NCBI RefSeq assembly: GCF_964355755.1
Contig: NC_092677.1
Span: 13,352,601-13,416,600, forward strand
Origin: Antedon mediterranea
Lineage: Eukaryota; Echinodermata; Crinoidea; Comatulida; Antedonidae
Length of the DNA: 64,000 nt
Reading direction: 5' to 3'
Position numbers and translations under genes: made by a program. The first letter of the stretch is position 1, and each line of letters starts with the position of its first letter. Of this stretch, positions 47,836-63,845 are shown one piece after another. Below the pieces are notes generated by a model. It saw only the letters and a list, made by a program, of their open reading frames with translations. It was not told the origin of the DNA and did not search any database.

Positions 47836-48482
47836 CTGAAAAAATATTTCTTGATCAATATAATTTTACTAGTAAGTAGTAGGCTAGTTACTCATCTTTC
47901 AAGTAAAATATAATTCTTTAATTTGAAAACCTGAAATGAAAAAACAATAATTTGTAATTTGTATTTAGCATTTTTAGTTTCTAAATTTTAGCATTTCTTC
48001 TAGGGCCTAGTAGGCTAGGCCTAGGTAGGTTAGTTTTTTAAAGTTATACAAATGTTTAAAGCAACAGTAAACAGATTAAAGAAAGGCCTAGGCCTAATTA
48101 ATAGTTAGCATAGTAGGCTAGGCCTTTTTAGTTAGCCTAGCTAGGCCTAGAAGTAGTAGGCTATGAACGGTAGTCAATGTAGTAAAAGGCCTGGCCCTGT
48201 ACAGTATCGTACAACCGACGTGGTATTACTATTACTTACGTAGTACTGTACTAGGCTAGGCCTACTACTAGGCTATCTAGTAGGCTAGCCTCCAAGGCCC
48301 TAGTAGCCTAGGCTAGTACTAGGCCTACTACACACTACTAGGCTCTAGGCTACTACTACTAGGCTAGTAGCCTAGGATAGGCCTGACCATAATTCGCCTA
48401 ATCTTTTGTCATTATTTATGATTAGGTTATTGTTAACTACACTATTTTCACATATATTTTTTTAAACCAAAACCTGTCTTAC
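47836..48482 (-). other. 5' UTR intron of AMFR with TAGGCCTA-rich tract
   Basis: On the minus strand a noncoding exon can end at 48,483, followed by the donor GTAAGA, and rejoin at 47,835 after TTTTTTCAG, 20 nt before the ATG. The interval contains an irregular tract at about 47,990-48,400 built from overlapping TAGGC, GGCCTA and TAGTAGGC words on both strands, several of them self-complementary. It is not a clean tandem repeat. Confidence 0.6.
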
Positions 48483-49105: not shown

Positions 49106-49336
<231 letters not shown>

Positions 49337-49339
49337 TGT

Positions 49340-49972: not shown

Positions 49973-52812
49973 ATGGAGAGCACATTTAGAGACTTTCGTC
50001 AAGAATTCAGCAATGTGTATCCTGGAGATAAAAGACGACAATTGAGATTTCTTCTTCAAGACTACATACCAATAGGTGTATTGGCACGTACAAATATCTC
50101 CGGAATGGAATTATTTAATGAACTTCAAAATAAAGGGGTTATCGCATACAATAATGTCAACGTTTTGTCAGAAATCGCAGTCTTGACAGAAAATGCCCAA
50201 GCAAAAGCCAGTGTGCAGAATTACAAAACAGAAGTCGGTGCACAATATGACAAAAGTGGGGCAAGTATGTATTTGTCTTTGTATCGTAAAAATCTTTATA
50301 AAGCTATAATTGCAATGACGGAGGAGAACGGGGGTGACGTCGACAACTTGGTTGGTTTCTACGGATTACGTCATCTTGGTCTCCAGAATAAATGGGACGT
50401 AGTTTTTCATCTGGAAAAAGAAGTGGAATTAAAAGATGAACAGAAGTCGTTGACGAGCTTTGCCAATCAGTTGAACAAAACAGCCAAGTCCATATTACTG
50501 GGTACGTATTTTAAATAAATATTAAATAATATTTAAAGTTGCATCGTCTAGGCTTATAGTTATACGGTTCATGACACACTTTTACAATTTAGTCTGCTTA
50601 TTTGAATTTAAGGCGTATAGGTCTACGCATTGAATAACCAATCGCCTTATGTATTGCTTGTTTCTATATTTTGTATTAAAATAGGATTTAGCCTATATCT
50701 TAAAAAATGCACTTTATTATCATCTATGATACCGTAGCACTTTTTTTAAAACGAAGACATCTGTTTTTAAATTTTATTTTTACAGGCCAAGAAGTCAGTA
50801 GGCCTATTGCAAGAGGAGGAACACCTATGTCAACAGGTAGATTTATTAATAGCCCTAAATTCGGGTTCAATATTGACGTTTTGACAAACCCTGGCCTATT
50901 GGTATTAAATGAACGTGCAGAACTTACTTTGAGCATATATGTCTGTGTGTCAAGTTTAGGCCTACGTATTCACTTCCTTTTTTTTAATGTAAAAGCTTGG
51001 TTCATATTAAGTCATTTGATAATGTATTTCCTCATAGAGGCCTATTTGTGTATAGCATTGTGTATCAGCCTAGCTTGAATTTAGGTTTCATTTAAAAAAA
51101 TGAGACTTCAATCACATACATTTACTCCTGTTAATTTGCAGTTTTAATTAAAATACTGCAGAATCTTCGTTATCAAAAAAAAAGAATGATTGATTGACAA
51201 AATAACAGTAATAATTGTTTTAATTTTGTAAGTGAAAACTTAATTTGTTCGGTTTTTTTCTTTAGAACTTTATTAAACCTACAAAATGGCCTATTCTAAG
51301 TCTGATTTTATTAATCTTCATTTTTCCTGTTTTGGGACACAAATACATCTTAGAAAAACGATGTTTTTTTATTTATGTTTTCAGCTACAGATGGTGTAGT
51401 GACAGACTCTACATCGACAACATCAAGGCCTACACCAGCAACAACAGCAACAGGTAAGAAGTAAAACCAACCGAATCAGAAACCTGTTGTTTTATGATTG
51501 CCTTTTCAAAGGGCAGTGTGAGGAATGCCAGATGTTGCGCAAACACTTAGCCTAAAGCCCTGTCGACATTATAAAACTTTATGTGACAAAAAATGTGATG
51601 TCATGATACACATAATATGGATATACCATTACCATATTTGGGCATATAACTACCATATTTTGGTACACCTTTTTGTCAATCTAGTTTGATAGTGAAGACA
51701 GAGTTTAAAAGAAGTAATCTGTAACAATAAATTGCTGAGCTAATATGATCTATGGTAAAACCATGAGCACAACATTATAAAAGTGTTACTATATATACAT
51801 TGTGGAAAGGATACGTATTAACAGATCACTGTACATCATTTTTCCTTGTTATGCTTTTAATTAATTTTTTTACAAGTTCATAATACATGACAAATTTAGA
51901 AACCTTCTATCTATAATACAAAATCTTAATCCTAAAAGTGGAAATAAGTCACGTCCTGGATCCATGCTGAACGGTTCCTAGTGAACCTGCGTTCAAACCT
52001 ACAGTGATTCACTATCATTCTGGAAATTATCTCACGCAAGATTTAGAATTTTAACGACATTTGGAATTATTGTTGACTTTATTAAGCTATTGTGTACATT
52101 TTATCTTGCCTAAGGCACGACATAAACAAAGATAATTATATTTATTATAAGTACTTGTTACCAAACAAAAACACGAAATACCAATCCTACTACTGTACTA
52201 ACAATTATGATATTTATTTTAATTGACGGTTGTAATGACCTGATTATCAGCCAATAACACGAACTTCTTTTCTATTTTTTTTCAAAAGTGAACGAGGTTG
52301 ATTTCAAACTCCTGAAAATGAATGTTTCAGAGTATTACGATGACAGAGATTGTCTCATTATGCTTAGAGTGTTATTTGGAGACCACATGGTAACACAACA
52401 ACAGAAAACAATCAATACCACAATAGATTTGTTAAATGTATTAGTTGAATCTGATGATCTAAGTTCCGATGATATCTCTATAATATTCGATACAATCAAC
52501 TTGACGGGCCAATACGGTTTACAACGTGAGATTCAGGCACAACTACCATCATTCCCAAAAGTAAAAAAGATCCCGATTTCTTACTTTACACCATACAGAC
52601 AGAACATAATGAAATTTGGAAGGGGCATAGGCGAACAAGATGTAATGAAGATTGATGGGTACTACAACACTCCGGTTAAGAGATACGAAAGTAGCTGGAA
52701 GATGATATATGACTTAGAATTTAGAAACATCATCAAAGAAAAGAACATCAAAGAATTCGTTGCACTGTTGACGAAATTGAAACTTCCATCCGCTGCAGGA
52801 TCGTTTGAATAA
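49973..52812 (+). CDS. four-DED protein, gene 1 of array
   Basis: Coding exons 49973-50501, 50786-50836, 51385-51453, 52289-52812; phases 1/1/1; 1,173 nt, 390 aa. Exon 1 (aa 1-176) is a tandem death-effector pair. DED1 has RQLRFLLQDYIPIGVL and MELFNELQNKGVI (helices 2 to 4 of the DED pattern). DED2 has LYRKNLYKAIIAMTEE, NKWDVVFHLEKEVEL and LTSFANQLNK, close to the second DED of caspase-8. Two small exons give a linker: RPIARGGTP, then a Thr/Ser/Pro-rich piece. Exon 4 gives a second pair: LRVLFGDHMV...DLSSDDISIIFDTINLT and PYRQNIMKFGRG...SSWKMIYDLE. No caspase, kinase, death-domain or transmembrane segment is present. A role as adaptor or decoy in caspase or immune signalling is inferred. The start follows an acceptor at 49,963. 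A MITE sits in the last intron. The RxDL motif usual at DED helix 6 is absent. Confidence 0.8.
50786..50836 (+). other. linker exon 2 of DED gene 1 (51 nt, phase 1-1)
   Basis: Preceded by TTATTTTTACAG and followed by GTAGAT. It encodes 17 codons rich in Arg, Gly, Pro, Thr and Ser, so skipping it keeps the frame. No matching exon exists in genes 2 or 3. Confidence 0.65.
51385..51453 (+). other. linker exon 3 of DED gene 1 (69 nt, phase 1-1)
   Basis: Preceded by TTTATGTTTTCAG and followed by GTAAGA. It encodes 23 codons, nine of them Thr (TSTTSRPTPATTAT), a likely flexible and possibly O-glycosylation-like segment, though the protein shows no signal peptide. In frame whether included or skipped. 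Confidence 0.7.
51565..51705 (-). mobile_element. MITE family A, copy 3, in last intron of DED gene 1
   Basis: Both inverted ends are visible: CTTTATGTGACAAAAAATGTG at the left, and TTTGATAGTGAAGACAGAG at the right. It lies in the intron between the linker exon and the second DED pair. Confidence 0.75.
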
Positions 52813-52894
52813 TTTAGAATTATTGAAAGGATGTGAATTACACACACGGTTCTTCTCTGTAGGCAAGAACATATCAGTGATAAACGATATATAA

Positions 52895-53060
52895 TAACCT
52901 TCCTTCCTTGCACTACTGAGGATGGGCTATAGTGCTGCCCGAAAGCTCTGCATTTTATGTCTGGCTGTTTTACTTTATCGTTTTGATTTAGATTGAGCAA
53001 TTTGTTTGCTATGTGCGCTTTATAAATCTTATTATCTTATTTTATCTTATTTTATTTTCT
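52895..53060 (+). mobile_element. probable retroposon 3' end downstream of DED gene 1
   Basis: GCACTACTGAGGATGGGC, CCCGAAAGCTCTGCATT and a terminal GCGCTTTATAAATCTTATT followed by TTATCTTATT repeats look like the tail of a non-LTR retroposon. It begins about 80 nt after the gene 1 stop, so it may supply part of the 3' UTR. Confidence 0.45.
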
Positions 53061-53900
53061 ATCTCAATTGAGATCCAGCCACTGATACCCACAGCATTAT
53101 TATTATTTTCAGTATTTTGATTTATATATAAATATTTATTTATCATAAGTATTATTATTAACGATTTCCTCGACGCATAACCAATTCATCTGATTTGTAT
53201 GGCCTATTGCAATATATAAATCAGTTCCAGCGTGACGTCATGGTCCATTATAAAAGCTTAATAGGCCTACTCTATCACTGGGCTACTTTATGTTAACTAA
53301 AAACTAACTATGAATATTTAAATGAAGCAATGGTTCATTCACATAAACATAATATTTAGATTCTTTTTTACATGGAAGTAAGTCTCAGTTTCGTCCTTAT
53401 ATAAATATGTGATACTTAAGAAAAGTGAGTCTGGTAAATTGGTGTTTTTCTGCTATAGTGAAACATATCGTACCATGTTTCCGCTTATAGATAGGCCTAC
53501 GTCTATGTTCGTCTACTTTTCAATACAAATAACAATACTGATATAAATAGAGCCACTGCCTAATCCACAGCATTATCATTTTCAGTATAATCAGCCTTTG
53601 TATATAGTAAATTATATATAATGTTTTTATTGAAATTAACAATACGCAGTTTGCTTCTCTGACTTATGTTTCAACTTTAATCCTTTTATATATTATTGTT
53701 AATGTTATAGTATTGGTTGCGAGGTTGCTTATTCTACTTGTATCTTCATTGCGATCCATCCACTGATATCCACAGCATTATCCATTTTCAGTAATTTGCC
53801 TTCGAATATACAGTATATCATAAATTATATAAATAATGTTTTTATTGAACAATACTCAGTTTTTCATGTAATAAAGATGTGCTTCTGAATTATGTTTCAT
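53060..53900 (+). repeat. three diverged copies of a roughly 150-200-bp intergenic repeat
   Basis: Units start near 53,060, 53,540 and 53,735. Each has GATCCAGCCACTGATA-like text, CCACAGCATTAT, TTTTCAGTA and then an AT-rich TATATA...AATGTTTTTATTGA tail. A fourth copy at about 59,645-59,760 precedes DED gene 3, so this unit probably travels with the gene duplication. Confidence 0.65.
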
Positions 53901-54049
53901 TTCTTTAATCATTTGCATGTTAATGTTATAGTATTTGGTTTTGGAATTAATATTAAATTTGATTGAAACTGTTTCTTTCTTCCGTTATTAGAATAAATTG
54001 CAGTTTGATTTTGACCTAAAATACAATTCCTAAAAATAGATCCATCAAT

Positions 54050-54184
54050 CGTAATTATGCATAACAAAGAAAAGACGCGATCACTCGTCGCTTCAGTGAC
54101 CTGATCTCCGTACTGTGGTAGTTGTAGAGGGAAAAGAAAGATTAAAACTAACCCTAGTTTTCCTAACTAAAGGAAAGGTAAAAG
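54050..54184 (+). promoter_or_regulatory. shared upstream module and 5' UTR exon of DED gene 2
   Basis: Conserved with 58,480-58,625 and 59,995-60,126: TATGCATAACAAAGAAAAG and ACGCGATC, then a diverged stretch, GTGGTAGTTGTAGAGG, and AAAGGAAAGGTAAAAG followed by a donor GTAAGG at 54,185. A matching acceptor TTTTCAG ends at 54,985, eight nt before the ATG at 54,993. So this is probably a noncoding first exon with its core promoter upstream. Confidence 0.6.
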
Positions 54185-54992
54185 GTAAGGATAGTTATTG
54201 CATAACATGTTTCAGATGGGTCCATACCAAAGGAATAATGGCGGATTATTTGATGTTTCAATTCAAAATAGGCTACAGACCGTCGCTCATACCGAACGCT
54301 ACAAACAGGCGAAATAACAATACTATAGGTCTCCTACAATAAAACTTTTATTATCCAAAATTCCGGGGAAATTCATTTCATAACCGTAGTCTAATAGTTA
54401 TCGTTCATCAATGATTTACAATATCGTATCAAATCGTAAAGAAATTAGTACTCTACTAGCTAGTCTGTCTATAATCAATTACACATATTAGGCCTACTAT
54501 TAGAAAATTAGAAAATACTATACGTTCGATAGGCCTCTTATAGAGGTGCATATGTACATTCGGTTTGGCAGGTTGATTCGTACAATCATAGAGATATTAT
54601 AGTGAACTCTGCTCACAGTGTATAGGACTGAATAAATATTAAACCGATAAGGCGAGTATATGGTCCTCTTGAAATGTGTTTATGATAATAATAATAATAA
54701 TAGGGCTTATAGGCATAATAACATATTTATATTACTCATGTCTAAAGGATACTGATTAAAGATGCTGTAAATACACAATAATAAAACAGGATGCTGAAGT
54801 TTCTTATATCTGTGGCTGCGACACGATCAGTTCCATGCCTTACAGATAAGTGTACAATACTGTTGGTATTTGTCGCAGTCATACATAAGATCAAAGGACG
54901 AGTTCCCATCTTGAGAACATGTTTCTGTAGATTGTCTTGGTAGGGCAATTTCTAAAGTCTCAATTATAAACTAAATTCTTTTCAGTAACAAA

Positions 54993-56694
54993 ATGGATGA
55001 TAGCTTTACAGAATTTCGACAAAAATTCAGTAATGCTTATCCCGGGGATAGAAGACAGGAATTGAGATTTCTTCTGCATGATCATCTACCGATTGGTGTA
55101 TTGTCTAAGGAACACAACTCAGGAATGGATTTGTTTAATGAACTTAAAACTAAAGGCATCATCAAATACAATAATGTTAAAATTATGTCAGAAATTGCAG
55201 ACGTGACAGAAAACGCCGACGCAAAAGCAAGTGTAAGTAAATACAAAAAGGAAGTTGGTAAAGACTATGATGGCAAGGGTGGGAAAAGTTTGTCTTCACA
55301 TCGTAAAACTTTCTATAAAGCTATGGATGAAATCACGGAAGAATTAGACGGAGGTGATGTACATAAGTTGGTTGGCTACTATGGATTGAGTTCACAAGGC
55401 ATTACAAATAAATGGGATTTAGTGTTTTATTTGGAGAAAGAGTTACAATTAAACACACGGAAGAAACTGGAGAGATTTGCCAATCAGTTGAATGCGAGTG
55501 CAAAAGTCAAATTGCTTGGTATGTATGTAAAACAGTGCTATTAATGTATATTTAAATTAATATCAAATAACAGCATAAAACTGTTTACTTATAATTTTAG
55601 TAGATAACTACAATATTGTTTTGTATGGCCAGCATATATAGCTGACCACATATCGGACTAAATTTGCAATTACAGTATATATTTTTGTTCAAGAAGGGGG
55701 GCGGGGGGAGCGGGAGAACGATTGATGATAAGTTCTAAACTTCTGGTCTCTGTCTGGATAAAAAAATGTATATCTTACAGTATGTTAATTTGTTGTTGGA
55801 AATAAAATATATATAAATTGGTTCTTCTGTATCGGTTATTCAACTACTGTTCTTATTTACATGATGCAGGTGAACAACCAGTTGCTGGTGGGGGTGTCGT
55901 GGAAGCAACATCAACAGCAGCAGGTAAGTATCCCTTTGAACCGACTAAGGTTGTATTATACAATGCATTGAGAAAAATGTCTGAATGAATACTCAAATTT
56001 TCCTAAGCGTTTCAGCCTAAATTTACGATTCATAAAACCGATAACATATATAGGCCTACAATGAGAACGAGGAAAAATGCCATATACCATTTTTCAATAT
56101 TTTTGTTCACAAATTAACGGATTGAGTCCAATTAACAAACCTTTTTCCTGATTTGCAGAATTGACCGACGATGATTACAAGCTTTTCAAAACGACCGTGT
56201 CAGCGTATTACGATGACAGACCGGATTGCCGCATTATGTTGATGGTGCTGTTTGGAGACCATGTTCCTACACAAAATCATAAAACACGTAATAGTACAAT
56301 AGATTGGTTAAATGCGTTAGAGGAATCTGATGATTTAAGTTCTGATGACATCTCTATCGTATATGATACAATAAACCTGACAGAACATTATGCTTTACAA
56401 AAGAAGATCAAAAAAGAAAAACTACCATTTCCCGAAGTTAGGCCAATAGAAATTACCAACTTCAGCAATTACAGACAGAAGATAATGAAATTTGGAAAGG
56501 GAATAACTCCAAATGATGTAGCAAAGATTGATGGGTACTATAACAATCCAGTTAAGAAATACAAAAGTAGTTGGGGTATGATATATGATTTAGAATTTGA
56601 GAAATCAATCTTCAAAGAAAGCAACATCGACGAATTTGTTGCAAAGTTGAAGCAATTGAAACTTCCGTCAAGCTCGGCAGAATTGTTGGAATAA
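54993..56694 (+). CDS. four-DED protein, gene 2 of array
   Basis: Coding exons 54993-55518, 55870-55923, 56159-56694; phases 1/1; 1,116 nt, 371 aa. DED1 (about 4-72): RQELRFLLHDHLPIGVL, MDLFNELKTKGII, VKIMSEIADVTE. DED2 (about 99-172): SSHRKTFYKAMDEITEE, DVHKLVGYYGL, NKWDLVFYLEKELQL, LERFANQLN. A single linker exon adds Gly/Val/Ala/Thr residues (176-193). DED3 (about 195-275): CRIMLMVLFGDHVPTQ, LNALEESDDLSSDDISIVYD. DED4 (about 293-365): YRQKIMKFGKGI, DVAKIDGYYNN, SSWGMIYDLE, IDEFVAKLKQLKL. DED4 lines up with DED2 (D-V-x-K, G-Y-Y, W-x-[LM]-[VI]-[FY]-x-L-E), so the protein is a duplicated tandem-DED unit. This is the most compact member. Poly(A) candidates are AATAAA near 56,933 and 57,333. 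Cytosolic adaptor role inferred. Confidence 0.82.
55870..55923 (+). other. linker exon of DED gene 2 (54 nt, phase 1-1)
   Basis: Bounded by ATGATGCAG and GTAAGT. It encodes GEQPVAGGGVVEATSTAA, 18 codons, short and flexible. Removing it would keep the frame. Confidence 0.75.
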
Positions 56695-56732
56695 TTCAGA
56701 TTTTATGCAAATTATCGGAAATAATTCTATAG

Positions 56733-56833
56733 TGATATGCTTAAATATGGTAGTGATATGACATCATCATATCCATATATGGGCACATCACATTTTTTGT
56801 CACATAAAGTTTGATAGCGTAGACAGAGCTTAG
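56733..56833 (+). mobile_element. MITE family A, copy 4, in the 3' UTR region of DED gene 2
   Basis: Starts 39 nt after the gene 2 stop with GATATGCTTAAATATGGTAG and ends GATAGCGTAGACAGAGCTTA. It is 5'-truncated, like the copy at 671-771, to which it is very similar. Confidence 0.75.
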
Positions 56834-58425
56834 AGCCTTGCACCTGATGATAAAATCGATATTTTTTATCTCCTTCATGAAATAGTCTGTAGTTTACAAT
56901 GTTTTATTCAAAGCAACTAAAATCGTTACGAAAATAAAATTTAATCAAAACGCTTGTGTGTTAGCATACTTAAAATGCTATAATTAAAGTTCAAATAAAT
57001 AATTTTGTTCTAAAAAATTTATCTAATAAACTTTCTTATGATAGATAGGCCTACATTTACATTTTTTGTTTATAAATTGATGGCCTGTAAACATTTTATA
57101 TAACTTTTTATTTTAGTATAATTTATACTCTTTTAGTTATGGAAGACATTGTTATTTCTTGGTTGTATGGCTACGTATGACTACCAGTTATTTGAATAGT
57201 CAAGCAGCTTTATTAATATTTAGATTTAAATATTTTAGAGCAAGTAAAAATTAGTGTGATCAAGTATATAATACATTTTATTTTGTATGTACAGTACAAG
57301 ACCAACTTGTGTTGATCTGGTCTCTCTGTTTAAATAAAGTTGAACTTGAACTATATTCTTTTTTGTTAATTTATTTTGAGAAGACGAGTTCTCGGTAAAC
57401 CTTGAGTTAATACATTATTTATTAATTGATTATTTGGAGAGTGTGGAGCAGGCGGGAGTAGATTATGACAATGATAATAACAGATAAGTGATGACAAATG
57501 CAGTAAATTCACAGTTTCATAACCAAACAGGTCAAATCTACACAATATGTTAATAACGGTTATCATTGTCCTATATTGTATGGTTGATTGATTGAAATGA
57601 AAAGGTGCTATTATCACACCAAGAGCGATTCTGTGGTGTTGTATGGAGACATTTGCCATCGAGGAGGCCTATTTTCAATCATTAAACATCATTCATTTTT
57701 CACACTCAGTGAACTGCCTGTCGTAAGAGAGCATATATTTATGATTTAAGCCTAAAAATATCATTTCTTCCTCGAGTGAACTTCAGCACAAACATGCTAA
57801 TTCAAAAGACACAATCGTTCACCCCTGTGCTGTCTGTAATAAACCTTTCGTTACAAATAGATTGGAGCTACCGTTGACATTGATAATAATAGTTACCGTA
57901 TACCTGGAATTTCCCTTTTGATCGCTTCGACAGTACAGTACCTAAAAATAGGTTTTAAATACAGTATTTATGCAAATGCAAACGTTTAGGTCTATGCTGA
58001 TTTTAGAGAATACGTTGAATTGCTCTTTAGGCTAGTTGAGAAGAGTGGAACCCTATTGAGGGGAAATTATCGAGACCCAAACAAATTGTCCCCTTAATAA
58101 TTTTAATTTTTAATCTATATGTAATTCGAAGAGTTACCAAGCCGTTTTCGACCGACCTTTTTTAGTGTTTTACATTGTTTAGGCCTACTGTTTGTTGGCC
58201 AAACGAATAAAATAAGATAATTGGCTAAAGGATTATAATTCATTTTCATTTAATTTGTCATTCCGTCAACAAAAGGACAACTGCAGATTTGACTAGTGTT
58301 TAGACTGTTTAGTTAATTATAACCATAACTTTATTTTGGCGCGTAAAAATATATGATACTACAGAATTGTACCCCTTTTCAATTAACTCGACTTTATCGT
58401 TATAGTATCAATGTGATTTTTACCT
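56834..58425. other. intergenic between DED gene 2 and the orphan module
   Basis: Contains the likely gene 2 poly(A) signals in its first 500 bp. No further exon with DED similarity was found on either strand. The minus-strand frame at 57,366-57,659 shows no family resemblance. Confidence 0.45.
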
Positions 58426-58429
58426 TTTC

Positions 58430-58625
58430 CTTAAAATACAATTTTGTAATCCCCATTCTCTTCTACAATTCCTAAAAATAGATCCATATAGCAAAAATAT
58501 GCATAACAAAGACAAGACGCCATCATAGTCAAACGACTGTTGTGAACTGATCGATCCATACAGTGGTTGTTATAGAGGGGCAAGACGCATCTATTTTTTA
58601 GTTTCTTCAGTATAAAAGGTGAAAG
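58430..58625 (+). promoter_or_regulatory. orphan copy of the DED-gene upstream module
   Basis: It has the same parts in the same order as before genes 2 and 3: TCCTAAAAATAGATCCAT, TATGCATAACAAAGACAAG, CAGTGGTTGTTATAGAGG, GGCAAGACGCATC, and a final GTGAAAG followed by donor GTAAGA at 58,626. No DED exon follows within 2 kb. Instead come a short hairpin element and a LINE fragment. It is either the remnant of a lost gene copy or a distal first exon for gene 3. Confidence 0.6.
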
Positions 58626-58651
58626 GTAAGAATTATTATAATTACGTAAAT

Positions 58652-58769
58652 ATCAGTTAGGGGGAAAATGGCAAAATCAGCACTGTGGTTATGTTACAAG
58701 AGTTGTCAATAGATTATCTGATAAAACTCATAGAAAGTAGGAAGCCTTTTGCCATTTTCCCCTAAACTG
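58652..58769. mobile_element. 118-bp foldback element
   Basis: TCAGTTAGGGGGAAAATGGC (from 58,652) is mirrored by GCCATTTTCCCCTAAACTGA (ending at 58,769). No coding capacity. It lies immediately after the orphan module. Confidence 0.75.
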
Positions 58770-58779
58770 ACATAGTACG

Positions 58780-59550
58780 GTACAAAGGATAGCAATTACC
58801 ATTCGCCTTAATTATTATATTATAAAAATATAAAGAGTGAAAAACACGACAACCTTCAGTACAGTTACTTATGCATATCAATATTTTCAACATAATCATA
58901 ATAATCTGTGGTTTCTGAGTAAATGCATGGTTTCTGGTAATTGGTACGACATTGAACAATTGAGTTAATCGATGAGTAGTACACTGTTGATGATAGTTAA
59001 GGTCTTTCAACTTTAAAAGGTTTAGGGAGGAAAATAAGGGATCTGAGTGAGCTAGTGGTGGTGCACCTGATATTATTCGAACTACTTTCTTCTGTTTGAT
59101 AAATAATCTGCTAGTGTTGGACTCATACGTGTTGCACCAAACTACATTGCAATAGTTTAAATATGGTAAAATAAGAGTACAATACAAGGTATGAAGAATG
59201 TTTTTGGAAGAAAAGAAGACAGTCTAAAAATGATACCAATATTTTTGGATATTTTATTTTTAATTTCTTTAATATGTTGCTTTCAAGTGAGACCTGAATC
59301 AATGGTAACACCAAGAAATTTCGTATTTTCTACAAGTGGAACAATATGTTCATTAATTTTAATATGTCTATCATCAAGATTTACAGGTTTGCGAGTGTTT
59401 CGAAACAAAATAGAACAGCATTTCTTAACGTTAACGGAAAGTTTGTTTGCTCGGAAATATTCACACACTTTAGTCAGTTCCTGGTTGACAACCGCAAATA
59501 CTGTATACTGTATAACACAAAATAGACACAATTCATCACTGTAAACATAT
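58780..59550 (-). mobile_element. LINE reverse-transcriptase fragment (jockey/CR1-like)
   Basis: The minus strand reads, in order, FRANKLSVNVKKC, INEHIVPLVENTKFLGVTID, then a Trp-to-stop change (TGA), KQHIKEIKNKISKNIG, a frameshift, LYCTLILPYLNYCNVVW, and VRIISGAPPLAHSDPLFSSL with LLKLKDLNYHQ. This is the thumb and C-terminal part of a non-LTR reverse transcriptase. It is dead, with at least one nonsense and one frameshift change. It splits the region between the orphan module and DED gene 3. Confidence 0.85.
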
Positions 59551-59644
59551 TTAATTTATTTATAGTATGGCATAATAATTTTCGGTGTTAACATATTAAC
59601 GTATGTGTGCATGTTGCGTTTGCGTCAAAGTGACGAGTTCAAAT

Positions 59645-59760
59645 ATAGTTTATTTGTATTTTCATTGCGATCCAGCCGCTGAACCACCATTATTATTTCT
59701 TCAGTAATCTGAATTTTAAGGTATGCACTAATGATAATGAACAACATAAAAATGTGTACG
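59645..59760 (+). repeat. fourth copy of the intergenic repeat seen at 53.1-53.9 kb
   Basis: TTTTCATTGCGATCCAGCC, CGCTGAACCACC and TTCTTCAGTAATCTG match the 53,735 unit (CTTCATTGCGATCC, CACTGATATCC, TTTTCAGTAATTTG). It supports an origin of gene 3's upstream region by duplication. Confidence 0.55.
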
Positions 59761-59919
59761 TAGCAGTATAGTTATGTGCCGATAGTAAAAGGCAGTGTTT
59801 TTTTATATTTTCATTTTATACTTTGCCCATTAGGCCCTAATGTTACTAATGTTATATTATTGTGAAGATTGTAAACAAAGATCAAATTTAATTGAAAAAA
59901 AAAAATGTTTAGGCCCTCT

Positions 59920-60126
59920 GTTATTAGAAACTGCAGTTTGCTTTGACTTTGCCTAACAATACAATTTCCATGCAGGGAAATAATACAATTTCTAATAATT
60001 ATGCATAACAAAGACAAGACGCGATCTCAGTTCGTCGATAGGGATTCTTTGACCTAACCCTAACAGTGGCTGTTATAGAAGGGCAAGACTCATCCATTTT
60101 TTTACTAAGTAAAGGAAAGGTAAAAG
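59920..60126 (+). promoter_or_regulatory. shared upstream module and 5' UTR exon of DED gene 3
   Basis: Conserved core TATGCATAACAAAGACAAG at about 60,000 and ACGCGATCTC, then CAGTGGCTGTTATAGAAGG, GCAAGACTCATCC and AAAGGAAAGGTAAAAG with donor GTAAGA at 60,127. The partner acceptor TTTTTTTCAG ends at 60,700, seven nt before the ATG at 60,708. Confidence 0.62.
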
Positions 60127-60707
60127 GTAAGAAAATCGCATAACATGTCTCTTAAGTAGGCCTACAATTGATTTAATGGGTACATGTTAAAATGTTGATG
60201 TTCGATTTCAGACTACGTGTCGCTCATTACCGTACGCGACAAACTGGCGAGATTACTGTATGCCTAGTCTTTATAATGCTTTTTAAAATGTTCATCATTG
60301 ATTTACAGTATCATATCATTCGTAAGAAATTAGTTTATAATGTTCTACTGTCTATACTCATTCATAAATACGTACTATTATTAAGAAATTAGGGAATACA
60401 ACCATTTTGATAACAGGCGTGGCACGGCTGGTTGTTGATGCGTGCGATCATCGAGATAGTGAACTTCATTCACAGTTAGTAGTGGCGCTGTTTTATATAA
60501 TTTGTATGCACTAGTTTTACTTATATAGAATATATACTGTATATTTAAAGAAGTCGGTGTTCATATCTTTTAAAGACAAGTTCTTTTTAATAGACGAATA
60601 AATAATCATTTTGAATAAAACGACAAATAAAAAAAAACAACAGTAGACTTAAAAGAAATTGAGAAAGAACAACAGGCTCAATTACAAACTTTTTTTTCAG
60701 TAACAAA

Positions 60708-61612
60708 ATGGATAGTGAAAGACTGCGAGACCTTTGTCAAGAATTCAGTAACGCTTATCCTGGAGATAAAACACGGGAGTTGAAATTTCTTTTACATGAT
60801 CACCTACCGGTTGGTGTAATGGCACAGGAGCACATTTCGGGAATGCAGCTTTTTAATGAACTCAGATCTAAAAGCAACATCACATACGATAGCATTACAA
60901 TTTTGTCAGAAATCGCAGACGTAACAGAAAACACCAAGGCGAAAGAAAGTGTAATTGAGTACACACAATATATTAGTCGACTCTATGATAGGGATGGTTT
61001 GTCTTCACATCGTAAAACATTTTATAAATCTATGATTCATATCACGGACAAAGATTTACGGAAGTTGATTGACTACTACGGATTAGGGTCACTAGGCATT
61101 ACAAATAAATGGGATTTAGTGTTTTATCTGGAGAAAGAACTGAAGTTAAACACACGAAAGAAACTGGAGAGATTTGCCAATCAGTTGAATGCGAGAGCAA
61201 AAAGGATATTACTAGGTACGTAGTAAACAGTATTTCGAACATATCATGTGCAGTCTAGATATTCTTTATGTAAGTATGCTTTTATTCTATAGGTTTCACA
61301 ACTCAATGCGAAGAAACAACACGTATACCAGATTTGTTTTTCTATTCAATTCGATTTTTACCTTGTTGACATTAGGCCTATGTAGTTCTACAAATTACTA
61401 TTAATTAATTAACAGTACAGTAATCAGATGCAATAACCAACAACATCCACTACGATTATCGAAAACCTTAACATTTATCAAAACGTAATTGAAGGAGATT
61501 CTTTTGGGGAGTCAAGACACATGGCTTTAAACGCCACCACAACAATATACATTTATTTTATGTAAGAGCCTTTTTTTAAATAAATTTGATATTATTCTCT
61601 ACTCATCATACA

Positions 61613-61659
<47 letters not shown>

Positions 61660-63845
61660 TATATCATTCAGATGGTGCACATGGTAGCGGAAGTCGAAGT
61701 GGTACAACGGCATCAAGCGAATCAGGTGAATATCATCATCTATATACAAATTAATTACATCTTTTGCGTAAACCTCAAAACCAAACACGTGCTTTTTACT
61801 TTCTGGTCTTCGAAAACAATTCGATGCCTGACTCTGGTTGATCCAATATGGCCGATTAACCAGTAAAAAGAACATCGAGATAAATTTCCATTTGCTATAA
61901 CGTAAACTGTCTCGTGTACAATTTTTTAAAAATGATTGATTACATCCTTCATACGGTACTTCGTTATTTACACGGGTAAGTCGATTTCTACTCCCCACCA
62001 AAGTTTGCGGTAATTGTGCTAAAATTGATTTAATTCAATGCTTTTATTCTATAGGTTTCACAACTCAAAGCGAAGAAACAACACATATACCAGATTTGTT
62101 TTTCTATTCAATTCGATTTTTACATTGTTTACATTAGGCCTATGTAGTTCTACAAATTACTATTAATTAATTAACAGTACAGTAATCAAATGCAATAACA
62201 TCCAACATCCACTACGATTATCGAGGGCAATGCTTATTGGCTTTTTGTTTCTTTGCCTGAAATTGATTTAATTTAATGTTTACTTACCTGTAAAAATAAT
62301 ACTTTTTATACCTGTTTTTTACTCTATTATACTAAGTTGGACTCACTTTTGGAAGCGGTACAGGTAAAGGTGCGCAAATAGCAACGTTTCCAACACAACA
62401 ATGTAAGTTAACATGCTCTGAAAATTTAATTTTTAAACATTTATCAAAACCTGATTGAAGGGGATTCTTTTGGGAAGGAAATGTACATGGCCTTAAACGC
62501 CACCCCAAAAATGTACACTTAATTTATAGGAGCCTCTTTTAAAATAAACTTAATATTTTCTACTCATACACTAAAAAAAATAGGGCCTAACGAATATTAT
62601 TCTGATGACGACGACTCAGATCATGGTGATGGTGCATATGGTGGCGGAAGTCGAGGTGGCGGTGGTGGAAGTCGAGGTGGCGGAAGTCGAGGTGGTGGAA
62701 GTCGAGGTGGCGGAAGTCGAGGTGGCGGTGGTGGAAGTCGAGGTGGCGGACGCGGTGGTGGTCCAAAATCAGGTGAATATCATCTATTATAACTTTTGCG
62801 TAAATCTCAAAACCAAACACGTACTTTTCACATTCTGGTCTTCGAAAACAAGTTGATGCCTGACCCTGGTTGATCAAATATGGCCGATAAGTACAGTAAA
62901 AAAGTACACCGAGATAAATTTCTCTGTACAATTTAAAAAGATTGATTGATTATGACTATATTATTTCAATATTATTAATTAACTTAATGTCTGAATGTTA
63001 AGTGATCGTTAAACAATAAAGTTGAGCATTTCCCCACCGGATTCTATTATTCTACTATAATATTCAATTACTTAAGAATATTGGTAATTCTGATGATGAG
63101 AAATGGTTGTAAGCTCAAATTAAAGACTGTTTGGATTCTAATGTCCTGTATATTTAGAATTATATTCGACGATCACATCAAAACCCCTCACCACCCCACC
63201 CCTAATCTCCACTATTATCACACTCCTAATAACAAACAATTATAATCGGTTGAACAATTTCTACTTCATAGAACATATTTGATTTTGCAGGAATGAGCAA
63301 GGCCGTTGATTTCAATCTTCTAAAAACGATTGAACATCTTTTCTAATTTTTTTTCAGAAGTGAACGAGGATGATTTCAATCTCCTGAAAATGATTGTGTC
63401 AGAGTATTACGATGACAGGAATTGTCTCATTATGCTGAAGGTGTTGTTTAGAGACCATGTGCCTCAATTCAAATTACAAGAAATGAGATCTACAATAGAT
63501 ATGTTAAACGCGTTAGAGGACTCCGGTGATTTAAGTTCAAAAGACATCTCGATAATATACGACACAATCAACTTGACAAAACAATATGCCTTGAAAGATA
63601 AGATACAGAAAGAATTACCATTTCCCAATGTAAGTGGAATACCAATTACCAACTTCACAGAGTACAGACAGAAGATAATGAAACTTGGAATGGAGATAAA
63701 TAGAAGGGATATACATAGAAGTGATATGTATTCTAACAATCCATACAAGGGATACCAAAGTAGTTGGAGAATGATAGACGATTTAGACGACGGCAACATT
63801 CAAACATTGTTGAGTAAACTGAATATGCTGCATTATTGGAATTAA
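60708..63845 (+). CDS. four-DED protein with acidic/GGSR linker, gene 3 of array
   Basis: Best model exons: 60708-61215, 61672-61725, 62337-62402, 62584-62772, 63358-63845; all junctions phase 1; 1,305 nt, 434 aa. Tandem DED pair in exon 1: RELKFLLHDHLPVGVM, MQLFNELRSKS, SSHRKTFYKSMIHITD, NKWDLVFYLEKELKL, LERFANQLN. The linker is about 100 residues: short Gly/Ser, an optional GLTFGSGTGKG piece, then EYYSDDDDSDHGDG and repeated GGGSR units. The second pair is shorter and more diverged, and its last DED ends early at LSKLNMLHYWN. Uncertain points: the third exon may end at 62,363; the fourth may start at 62,620 (in frame, 12 codons shorter); the last acceptor is CAGAAG, so it may start at 63,361. 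The linker could bind RNA or drive condensation by analogy with RGG regions; that is inference. It lies 4 kb after gene 2. Confidence 0.75.
61613..61656. repeat. (ATA)n microsatellite
   Basis: Pure AAT/ATA triplets ending about 15 nt before the acceptor of linker exon 61672-61725, so length change could affect branch-point spacing. Confidence 0.9.
61672..61725 (+). other. linker exon 2 of DED gene 3 (54 nt, phase 1-1)
   Basis: Bounded by ATATCATTCAG and GTGAAT. It encodes DGAHGSGSRSGTTASSES. It is the unexpanded sister of the exon at 62,584-62,772, which lies in copy B of the same duplication. Confidence 0.7.
62337..62402 (+). other. candidate linker exon 3 of DED gene 3 (66 or 27 nt)
   Basis: Acceptor after TTTTTTACTCTATTATACTAAG. 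Two possible donors, GTAAAG at 62,364 and a perfect GTAAGT at 62,403, both keep phase 1-1 and an open frame (GLTFGSGTGKGAQIATFPTQ). It lies in the extra sequence found only in copy B. No transcript support. Confidence 0.45.
62584..62772 (+). other. acidic and GGGSR-repeat linker exon of DED gene 3
   Basis: 189 nt, phase 1-1, donor GTGAAT. It encodes an acidic start (EYYSDDDDSDHGDG), then seven Arg residues spaced by GGGS or GGGGGS, ending GGGRGGGPKSG. At the DNA level the repeat (62,640-62,763) is the 15-bp unit GGTGGCGGAAGTCGA and a GGT-extended variant. By homology to copy A the acceptor may be at 62,619 instead, giving 153 nt, also in frame. The antisense His-rich frame over it is an artefact. 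Confidence 0.7.
63291..63346 (+). other. possible alternative or decaying terminal exon of DED gene 3
   Basis: After GATTTTGCAG at 63,281-63,290, a phase-1 reading gives MSKAVDFNLLKTIEHLF and a stop at 63,344-63,346. The DNA word GATTTCAATCTTCTAAAAACG copies GATTTCAATCTCCTGAAAATG of the real last exon 65 bp downstream, so this is a partial duplication of that exon's start. If used, it would end the protein before the second DED pair. Confidence 0.5.

What the first reader, a model, noticed from the sequence alone, without database searches (positions are those of the whole stretch)
49973..63845. Tandem array of three genes encoding four-death-effector-domain proteins with no effector domain
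Each gene joins a caspase-8/c-FLIP-like tandem DED (exon 1) to a second, diverged tandem DED (last exon). The pairs are internally homologous: [LM]-x-[FV]-L-[LF]-x-D-[HY]-[LVIM]-P recurs in DED1 and DED3 (gene 1's DED3 diverges at the last position), and W-x-[LM]-[VI]-[FY]-x-L-E with G-Y-Y recurs in DED2 and DED4 of gene 2. Known DED proteins have one or two DEDs, usually fused to a caspase, a death domain or a kinase-binding part. A duplicated tandem-DED scaffold, itself in tandem array, could nucleate, bridge or cap DED filaments. I know of no described family with this layout, but I could not search.
Basis: partly seen in the sequence, partly recalled or inferred. Interest (0 to 1): 0.88.

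Follow-up and report, generated by a model that had tools for sequence, protein, structure and literature searches.

The report
Array of four-DED protein genes
An animal genome carries a row of genes for proteins that seem to consist only of four death-effector domains, built from the same paired-domain modules that lie beside many of its innate-immune-type receptor genes, so they may link or block an immune signalling network that uses these domains on an unusually large scale.

Summary
Three genes (49973-63845, +) each join a tandem death-effector-domain (tDED) first exon to a second, diverged tDED last exon through phase-1 linkers; the joined frames are open: 390, 371 and 412 aa. First-exon relatives as a profile find caspase-8 (E 1.4e-6); the gene-2 last-exon model (pLDDT 82.7) matches the caspase-8 tDED (TM up to 0.73). 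No effector domain was found in what was scanned.

The window shows three of nine two-tDED genes in a 90-kb array. At least 299 tDED-exon places occur genome-wide (capped lists), in two deep classes, N and C. Of 103 NACHT exons, 56 have a tDED exon within 10 kb upstream. The window's N-tDEDs nest in a clade with receptor-linked tDEDs. Of fetched C-exons, 12 of 13 that follow an N-exon end in a stop; 16 of 16 others keep a splice donor.

Best reading: DED-only bridging adaptors of a tDED receptor network; decoy inhibitors are the main rival. There are no transcript or binding data.

The parts
49973..50501 (+). Gene 1 first exon: N-class tandem DED, ends in phase-1 donor G|gtacgt
50786..50836 (+). 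Gene 1 linker exon, phase 1-1 (inferred)
   Evidence: GT-AG and open frame
51385..51453 (+). Gene 1 Ser/Thr-rich linker exon, phase 1-1 (inferred)
   Evidence: GT-AG and open frame
52289..52812 (+). Gene 1 last exon: C-class tandem DED, in-frame stop, no splice donor at the position used by relatives
54993..55518 (+). Gene 2 first exon: N-class tandem DED
55870..55923 (+). Gene 2 linker exon, phase 1-1 (inferred)
56159..56694 (+). Gene 2 last exon: C-class tandem DED; AlphaFold model matches the caspase-8 tDED along its length
60708..61215 (+). Gene 3 first exon: N-class tandem DED
61672..61725 (+). Gene 3 linker exon, phase 1-1 (inferred)
62337..62402 (+). Gene 3 possible further linker exon (uncertain; the frame is open with or without it)
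62584..62772 (+). Gene 3 acidic and Gly/Ser/Arg-rich linker exon, phase 1-1 (inferred)
63358..63845 (+). Gene 3 last exon: C-class tandem DED, shortened in the fourth DED

Best explanation
The array encodes DED-only adaptors of a tandem-DED innate immune network. In this genome tDED exons come in two old classes, N and C, which look like exchangeable modules lying beside NACHT receptor exons, protein-kinase exons and other immune-type domains. A four-DED gene joins one N-class and one C-class tDED by a flexible linker and then stops. Proposed mechanism: the N-tDED joins the assembly of receptors carrying the matching N-class tDED and the C-tDED joins proteins carrying C-class tDEDs, so one molecule couples two DED assemblies, much as FADD couples DD to DED and ASC couples PYD to CARD (recalled). 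Shown: exons, DED homology, the two classes, NACHT and kinase neighbours, terminal C-exons, dN/dS below 1. Inferred: splicing, that neighbours are in one gene, homotypic binding, coupling, immune role.
For: Two classes separated 100/100 among 70 sequences. Of 150 N-class places 18 have a C-class exon within 8 kb downstream on the same strand, 0 on the opposite strand. NACHT exon within 10 kb downstream for 31 of 150 N and 32 of 150 C exons; 0 on the opposite strand; 56 of 103 NACHT exons have a tDED exon upstream. The window's N-tDEDs lie in an 11-row clade (100/98) of 4 array rows and 7 others, of which L023, L032 and L034 have a listed NACHT exon within 10 kb downstream. Outside the array the nearest relatives of its C-tDEDs are L039, then L040-L042 (contigs C3 and C7); L040 and L042 have NACHT exons 1.0 and 1.3 kb downstream. 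In one array gene (L011) the N half falls in another N clade while its C half stays with the array: module exchange. Of 13 fetched C-exons preceded by an N-exon 12 end in a stop with no donor; 16 of 16 without a known N-exon upstream have a phase-1 donor at codons 39-41 after the conserved W. dN/dS among the three window genes 0.24, 0.34, 0.39 (first exon) and 0.26, 0.30, 0.48 (last exon). Precedent: amphioxus ASC homologues carry a DED in place of PYD (passages of PMC3196919).
Against: Known bridging adaptors are usually single and conserved (recalled), whereas this is a multicopy, diverging array, which suits decoys better. No binding was tested. The RIDL stretch of c-FLIP DED2 aligns with N-A-K-A in the first-exon profile, so the RxDL contact (recalled) is not kept there. 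The two lists were cut at the best 150 of 362 and of 423 candidates. The reverse order, C then N within 8 kb, occurs for 6 C-exons, probably from one gene to the next, but not checked one by one. NACHT also lies upstream on the same strand of 8 N and 2 C exons. Of 41 N-exons 9 lack a phase-1 donor at the expected place, among them L030-L032 and L035, close kin of the array. One paired C-exon (L045) has a NACHT exon downstream and neither stop nor donor. That the 16 are unpaired rests on the capped list; I read 4.7-5.1 kb upstream for three of them.
Confidence: 0.42

Rival explanations
1. DED-only decoys: the proteins copy receptor tDEDs and block or cap receptor assemblies, as pyrin-only and CARD-only proteins do for inflammasomes and v-FLIP or short c-FLIP do for caspase-8. 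Four DEDs would raise avidity or block two classes at once.
For: N-tDED nested in a clade with receptor-linked tDEDs; donor absent and stop present in the array C-exons; local amplification and divergence, dN/dS 0.64 and 0.47 between the two youngest copies, on 18 and 12 changes; pyrin-only and CARD-only proteins are described as regulators of NLRs and inflammasomes (starts of the abstracts of PMC3775265 and PMC10803020).
Against: A simple decoy needs one tDED; the pairing of N with C is seen in about four separate places of the C tree (L028, L057 with L069, L066, array), which suits a joining role.
Confidence: 0.33
2. Decayed or truncated receptor genes kept for a time by local duplication, without a function of their own.
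For: Partial N-exon at C8:13455234 and a C-exon fragment in L009; 6 of 150 and 4 of 150 listed family places carry stops; gene 3 has a shortened fourth DED; no clear phase-1 acceptor for the second tDED of L075.
Against: dN/dS 0.24-0.48 in both exons among the window genes; three open joined frames; stop 37-40 codons after the W in 6 of 7 array C-exons; the four-DED layout recurs elsewhere.
Confidence: 0.12
3. First and last exons belong to separate two-DED genes.
For: No transcript data; the two exons lie 0.6-5.7 kb apart in the seven array pairs.
Against: The first exons end in phase-1 donors (window 3 of 3; 32 of 41 N-class exons, against 4 of 41 with such a GT in another phase); a phase-1 acceptor was found for 20 of 29 C-exons and for all three in the window; linker exons fit in frame; 9 of 10 array N-exons are followed by a C-type exon.
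Confidence: 0.06
4. Structural crosslinker of DED filaments into condensates, without class-specific bridging.
For: Four assembly-type domains and a long Gly-rich linker in gene 3.
Against: Does not explain why one N and one C class are combined.
Confidence: 0.07

Closest known systems
Caspase-8 / c-FLIP tandem DED
   Same: Two DEDs in order; best solved matches by sequence and by structure.
   Different: No caspase or pseudo-caspase domain found; two tDEDs per chain; RxDL stretch not kept in the first DED.
Viral FLIP (MC159, KSHV vFLIP) and short c-FLIP
   Same: DED-only proteins (recalled); MC159 and vFLIP are among the Foldseek rows.
   Different: Two DEDs rather than four; those act on the caspase-8 or NF-kB pathway (recalled).
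DED-NACHT receptors of amphioxus, sea urchin and Nematostella
   Same: DED in front of NACHT (passages of PMC2575513); 24 sea cucumber NLRs with one or more death/DED domains (passages of PMC8913654).
   Different: The array genes carry no NACHT; the nearest listed NACHT exon is at least 574 kb away. The passages that I read do not describe tandem DEDs as the common module at this scale.
DED plus TRADD-N lineage-specific expansions (PMC8195603)
   Same: Lineage-specific expansion of DED proteins with a constant front and a variable back (passages); a TRADD-N match lies 0.1 kb after a tDED ORF in L016.
   Different: No TRADD-N found in the array; only 2 TRADD-N matches genome-wide at E 0.001.
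ASC-type and FADD-type adaptors; amphioxus DED-ASC
   Same: Adaptor without enzyme that joins two death-fold types; amphioxus ASC uses a DED (passages of PMC3196919).
   Different: Here both halves are tandem DEDs; bridging is not shown.

Membership tests
Death effector domain (Pfam PF01335) | Sequence match to the family at its curated cut-off | tested here: not met
   All six exons match at E 1.3e-7 to 4e-4 but under the gathering score, and in the first half only.
Death effector domain (Pfam PF01335) | Homology to DEDs of known structure | tested here: met
   Profile of 41 N-class exons: caspase-8 E 1.4e-6; of 29 C-class exons: c-FLIP 5.1e-5, caspase-8 6.3e-4. 38 of 41 and 28 of 29 members match PF01335 at E 0.01.
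Death effector domain (Pfam PF01335) | Helical death fold | tested here: met
   Gene-2 last exon: pLDDT 82.7, TM up to 0.73 to the caspase-8 tDED. For the first exons the model is poor; the claim rests there on profile homology.
Death effector domain (Pfam PF01335) | RxDL charge motif (recalled) | tested here: not met
   RIDL of c-FLIP DED2 aligns with N-A-K-A in the first-DED profile; the other three DEDs were judged by eye only.
Caspase-8 / c-FLIP | Caspase or pseudo-caspase domain after the tDED | tested here: not met
   None of the 33 Peptidase_C14 matches lies on this contig; none in the 10 other ORFs scanned.
NLR (NACHT receptor) | NACHT domain in the gene | tested here: not met
   Nearest of 103 listed NACHT exons at least 574 kb from the array's N-exons (162 candidates); stops end the last exons.
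v-FLIP-like DED-only inhibitor | Only DEDs in the protein | tested here: met
   Predicted proteins; no transcript.
v-FLIP-like DED-only inhibitor | Inhibits DED assembly | not testable with these tools
   Needs binding and filament assays.
ASC/FADD-type bridging adaptor | Two different death-fold modules in one chain | tested here: met
   N and C classes separated 100/100 and each also found beside NACHT exons; that they differ in binding is not shown.
ASC/FADD-type bridging adaptor | Physical bridging of two partners | not testable with these tools
   Needs co-precipitation or reconstitution.

The most novel reading that the evidence does not exclude
An inflammasome-like network built on tandem DEDs: receptors and kinases carry either an N-class or a C-class tDED, and recurrent four-DED proteins are the coupling adaptors that join the two classes, a DED counterpart of ASC that has arisen or been kept in several lineages of one genome.
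Probability: 0.35. Interest if true: 0.85.

Novelty: new variant of a known kind. Interest (0 to 1): 0.66.

Why it matters
Described death-fold networks use DEDs more sparingly: 8 DED proteins in human, 57 in amphioxus, 3 in sea urchin in one early survey (PMC2246300, table seen in passages; it counts proteins by other methods, so the comparison is rough). A genome with at least 299 tandem-DED exon places, many beside NACHT exons and some beside kinase exons, plus a recurrent four-DED layout, would be a natural experiment in how death-fold assemblies are wired and kept from cross-talking. It gives a direct test of whether separate tDED classes act as separate signalling channels and whether four-DED proteins join or insulate them.

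Tried and rejected
Rejected: 'not DEDs'. 'Hidden effector in the array', as far as looked: of 10 further window ORFs that I chose (62 ORFs of 60 aa or more; one of the 10 lies upstream of the array) four gave nominal Pfam matches at E 0.0037 to 0.045, all below their cut-offs, a reverse transcriptase piece at 59283-59552 being the only sensible one. 'One recent internal duplication', because each half has closer kin elsewhere than the other half.

Led nowhere: naming the organism. COX1 gave no match; papers searched by assembly size and by crinoid genome terms gave no identification. Echinoderm is only my guess from the genome's general look. The first-exon AlphaFold model was too weak to use alone. 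TRADD-N gave only two genome matches, so a link of the array to TRADD-N is not supported. An early idea that two array N-exons had no second tDED was wrong: the DNA shows diverged C-type exons after both.

Results against my reading: Pfam sees no second half and no hit reaches its cut-off; no RNA; possible pseudogene features (partial exon, L075 acceptor); L045, a paired C-exon with NACHT downstream and neither stop nor donor; L039, one of the 16 with a donor, is followed by another tDED exon (L071); 9 of 41 N-exons lack the donor, and 9 of 29 C-exons lack a phase-1 acceptor by my rule; the three C-type exons of L071, L074 and L075 score less apart between the two classes (95-103 against 54-56 bits) than the 70 in the tree, which had been chosen by a score over 80; 6 C-exons are followed by an N-exon. 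The 40 loci were picked by me from the lists, not at random.

Full report
The three genes named in the finding are there. Each has a first exon of 169-176 whole codons that starts at an ATG and ends in a phase-1 donor, and a last exon that begins at a phase-1 acceptor and closes with a stop. Short symmetric phase-1 exons rich in Ser, Thr, Gly or acidic residues fit between them. The joined frames are open and give 390, 371 and 412 residues. The splice model is inferred from sequence.

Both ends are tandem DEDs. Pfam matches only the first half of each exon and below its cut-off. Profiles do better. The 41 N-class relatives find caspase-8 with E 1.4e-6, then c-FLIP, FADD and PEA-15. The 29 C-class relatives find c-FLIP (5.1e-5) and align to caspase-8 across both of its DEDs (6.3e-4). 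The two profiles align to each other over 160 columns with E 1.2e-20. AlphaFold of the gene-2 last exon, with the five other exons of the window as its alignment, reached pLDDT 82.7; the 50 Foldseek rows shown, of 78, are all from DED-protein structures, the best along the caspase-8 tDED with TM up to 0.73, but none has an E-value below 0.001. The first exon, with three rows, gave pLDDT 47.5 only.

The finding is part of something much larger. A genome search with the gene-2 first exon scored 150 of 362 candidates and all 150 matched, the weakest at E 1.6e-14. The last exon gave 150 of 423, the weakest at 4e-11. The two lists do not overlap and make 299 distinct places; both were cut at 150, so this is a lower bound. 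Ten of the 300 rows carry stops. The 70 sequences that I fetched and that scored over 80 fall clearly into one class or the other, separated 100/100 on the tree. I call them N class and C class. Three more diverged C-type exons found later are less far apart in score. The Pfam DED model itself gave 90 genome matches, of 150 scored.

What surrounds these exons differs from the array. NACHT: 103 exons listed, 162 candidates; 56 of the 103 have a listed tDED exon within 10 kb upstream on the same strand. Seen from the tDEDs, 31 of 150 N and 32 of 150 C exons have NACHT downstream, 8 and 2 have it upstream, and none has it on the opposite strand within 10 kb. At C10:20.23-20.35 Mb kinase-like ORFs stand before N-class tDED exons in several fetched loci (by eye; Pfam-tested for one, in L012); calling them RIPK-like is my recollection. 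Near other copies there are leucine-rich repeats (L024), a TRADD-N match (L016) and NHL repeats, with B-box and filamin matches under their cut-offs (L026). That these neighbours share a gene with the tDED is inferred. So the tDED looks like a general module of immune-type proteins here. Caspase-like matches are far fewer: 33 exon matches of 37 candidates.

Within the array ten N-class exons lie between C8:13402573 and 13491413. Nine are followed by a C-type tDED exon on the same strand, seven from the lists and two more diverged ones found by reading the DNA; the tenth N-exon is partial. No listed NACHT exon is closer than 574 kb.

The last exon shows how such a protein lost, or never had, an effector. 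In the 29 C-class exons that I had fetched I measured the distance from the conserved W to the first stop and to a phase-1 donor. All seven array exons of this set end in a stop, six of them 37-40 codons after the W and gene 3 at 26, with no donor. Of the 22 exons elsewhere, 16 have a phase-1 donor at codons 39-41 and no stop before it. The other six are all preceded by an N-class exon: five end in a stop, at codons 27, 34, 39, 39 and 58 (the two at 39 are near-identical copies), and one, L045, which also has a NACHT exon downstream, has neither. Thus 12 of 13 paired C-exons are terminal and 16 of 16 not known to be paired splice on. These sequences are related, so this is far from 29 independent events; on the tree the terminal ones fall in about four places. 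Whether terminal is ancestral or derived was not tested; the array's exons nest among spliced-on ones, which suggests a gain of the stop there.

The tree separates the histories of the two halves. The window's N-tDEDs lie in an 11-row clade (100/98) with one other array row and seven rows from C8:24.5-24.7 Mb, C8:14.07 Mb and C6; three of the seven have a listed NACHT exon within 10 kb downstream. The array's C-tDEDs form a 7-row clade (100/96) next to L039 from C3, then L040-L042 from C7 and C3. One array gene (L011) combines an array C-tDED with an N-tDED of another clade (99/97) that also holds the C10 copies beside kinase ORFs. The genes therefore look assembled from exchangeable modules.

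Selection: dN/dS among the three window genes is 0.24, 0.34 and 0.39 for the first exon and 0.26, 0.30 and 0.48 for the last; between gene 2 and its closest copy it is 0.64 and 0.47 on 18 and 12 changes; among the six non-array C8 N-tDEDs compared it runs from 0.32 to 1.09. Synonymous distances near or above 1 are rough. Both halves appear constrained.

Function. The pairing of one N and one C module in several lineages suggests a joining role; the local amplification and the lack of an effector suggest a decoy role. I put the adaptor slightly ahead. The step from shared class to shared binding is inference. The RIDL stretch of c-FLIP is not kept in the first DED, so assembly may differ from the caspase-8 system.

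Literature seen: passages of PMC2246300, PMC2575513, PMC8195603, PMC12373286, PMC11797021, PMC12909245, PMC6321704, PMC8913654, PMC3196919; listing with the start of the abstract only for PMC3775265 and PMC10803020. No four-DED family turned up, which search open-licence full texts only. DED in front of NACHT is known; DED expansions with TRADD-N are known; the four-DED layout and the scale of tandem-DED modules are what looks new, as far as these searches show.

Noticed in passing
DED pairs at C9:14107698, C3:17145214, C3:25188122, C4:16658379; caspase-like exons at C9:14165004, C3:17087114, C3:25293898, C4:16569873, C4:16716337: DED pairs with identical scores recur at four dispersed places, and caspase-like exons (identical scores in four of five) lie about 57-58 kb from them in three of four cases: possibly a large repeated or mobile unit carrying both. 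Only coordinates and scores were seen.
   Followed up: no
L012-L017 (C10:20.23-20.35 Mb): Kinase ORFs (Pfam-tested in L012, others by eye) stand before N-class tDED exons, with CUB and MAM matches in L015 and membrane-span-like stretches nearby: a kinase with a tandem DED would be unusual.
   Followed up: partly
L026 and L027 (C9:5.46-5.49 Mb): N-class tDED exon followed by ORFs that look TIR-like and TRADD-N-like by eye (no Pfam match for the two tested in L026) and, in L026, an ORF with NHL repeats.
   Followed up: partly
window, 28 sites, e.g. 48016-48327: The palindrome TAGGCCTA occurs 28 times against 0.5 expected from shuffles.
   Followed up: partly
L009 and L010 (C8:13416601-13436600): Much of the 20 kb after gene 3 looks like a tandem satellite with units of roughly 190-370 bases (by eye from the ORF list).
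   Followed up: no
window 59283-59552, - strand: Weak reverse transcriptase match (PF00078, E 0.0037, under its cut-off) between genes 2 and 3.
   Followed up: no
C3:7876626 (L039) and L071:1137-1745: A C-class tDED exon with a splice donor is followed about 1.2 kb on by another, diverged C-type tDED exon: perhaps a four-DED gene of another make-up.
   Followed up: partly
window 49108-49338: Long (TA)n stretch upstream of gene 1 (seen in the ORF list).
   Followed up: no
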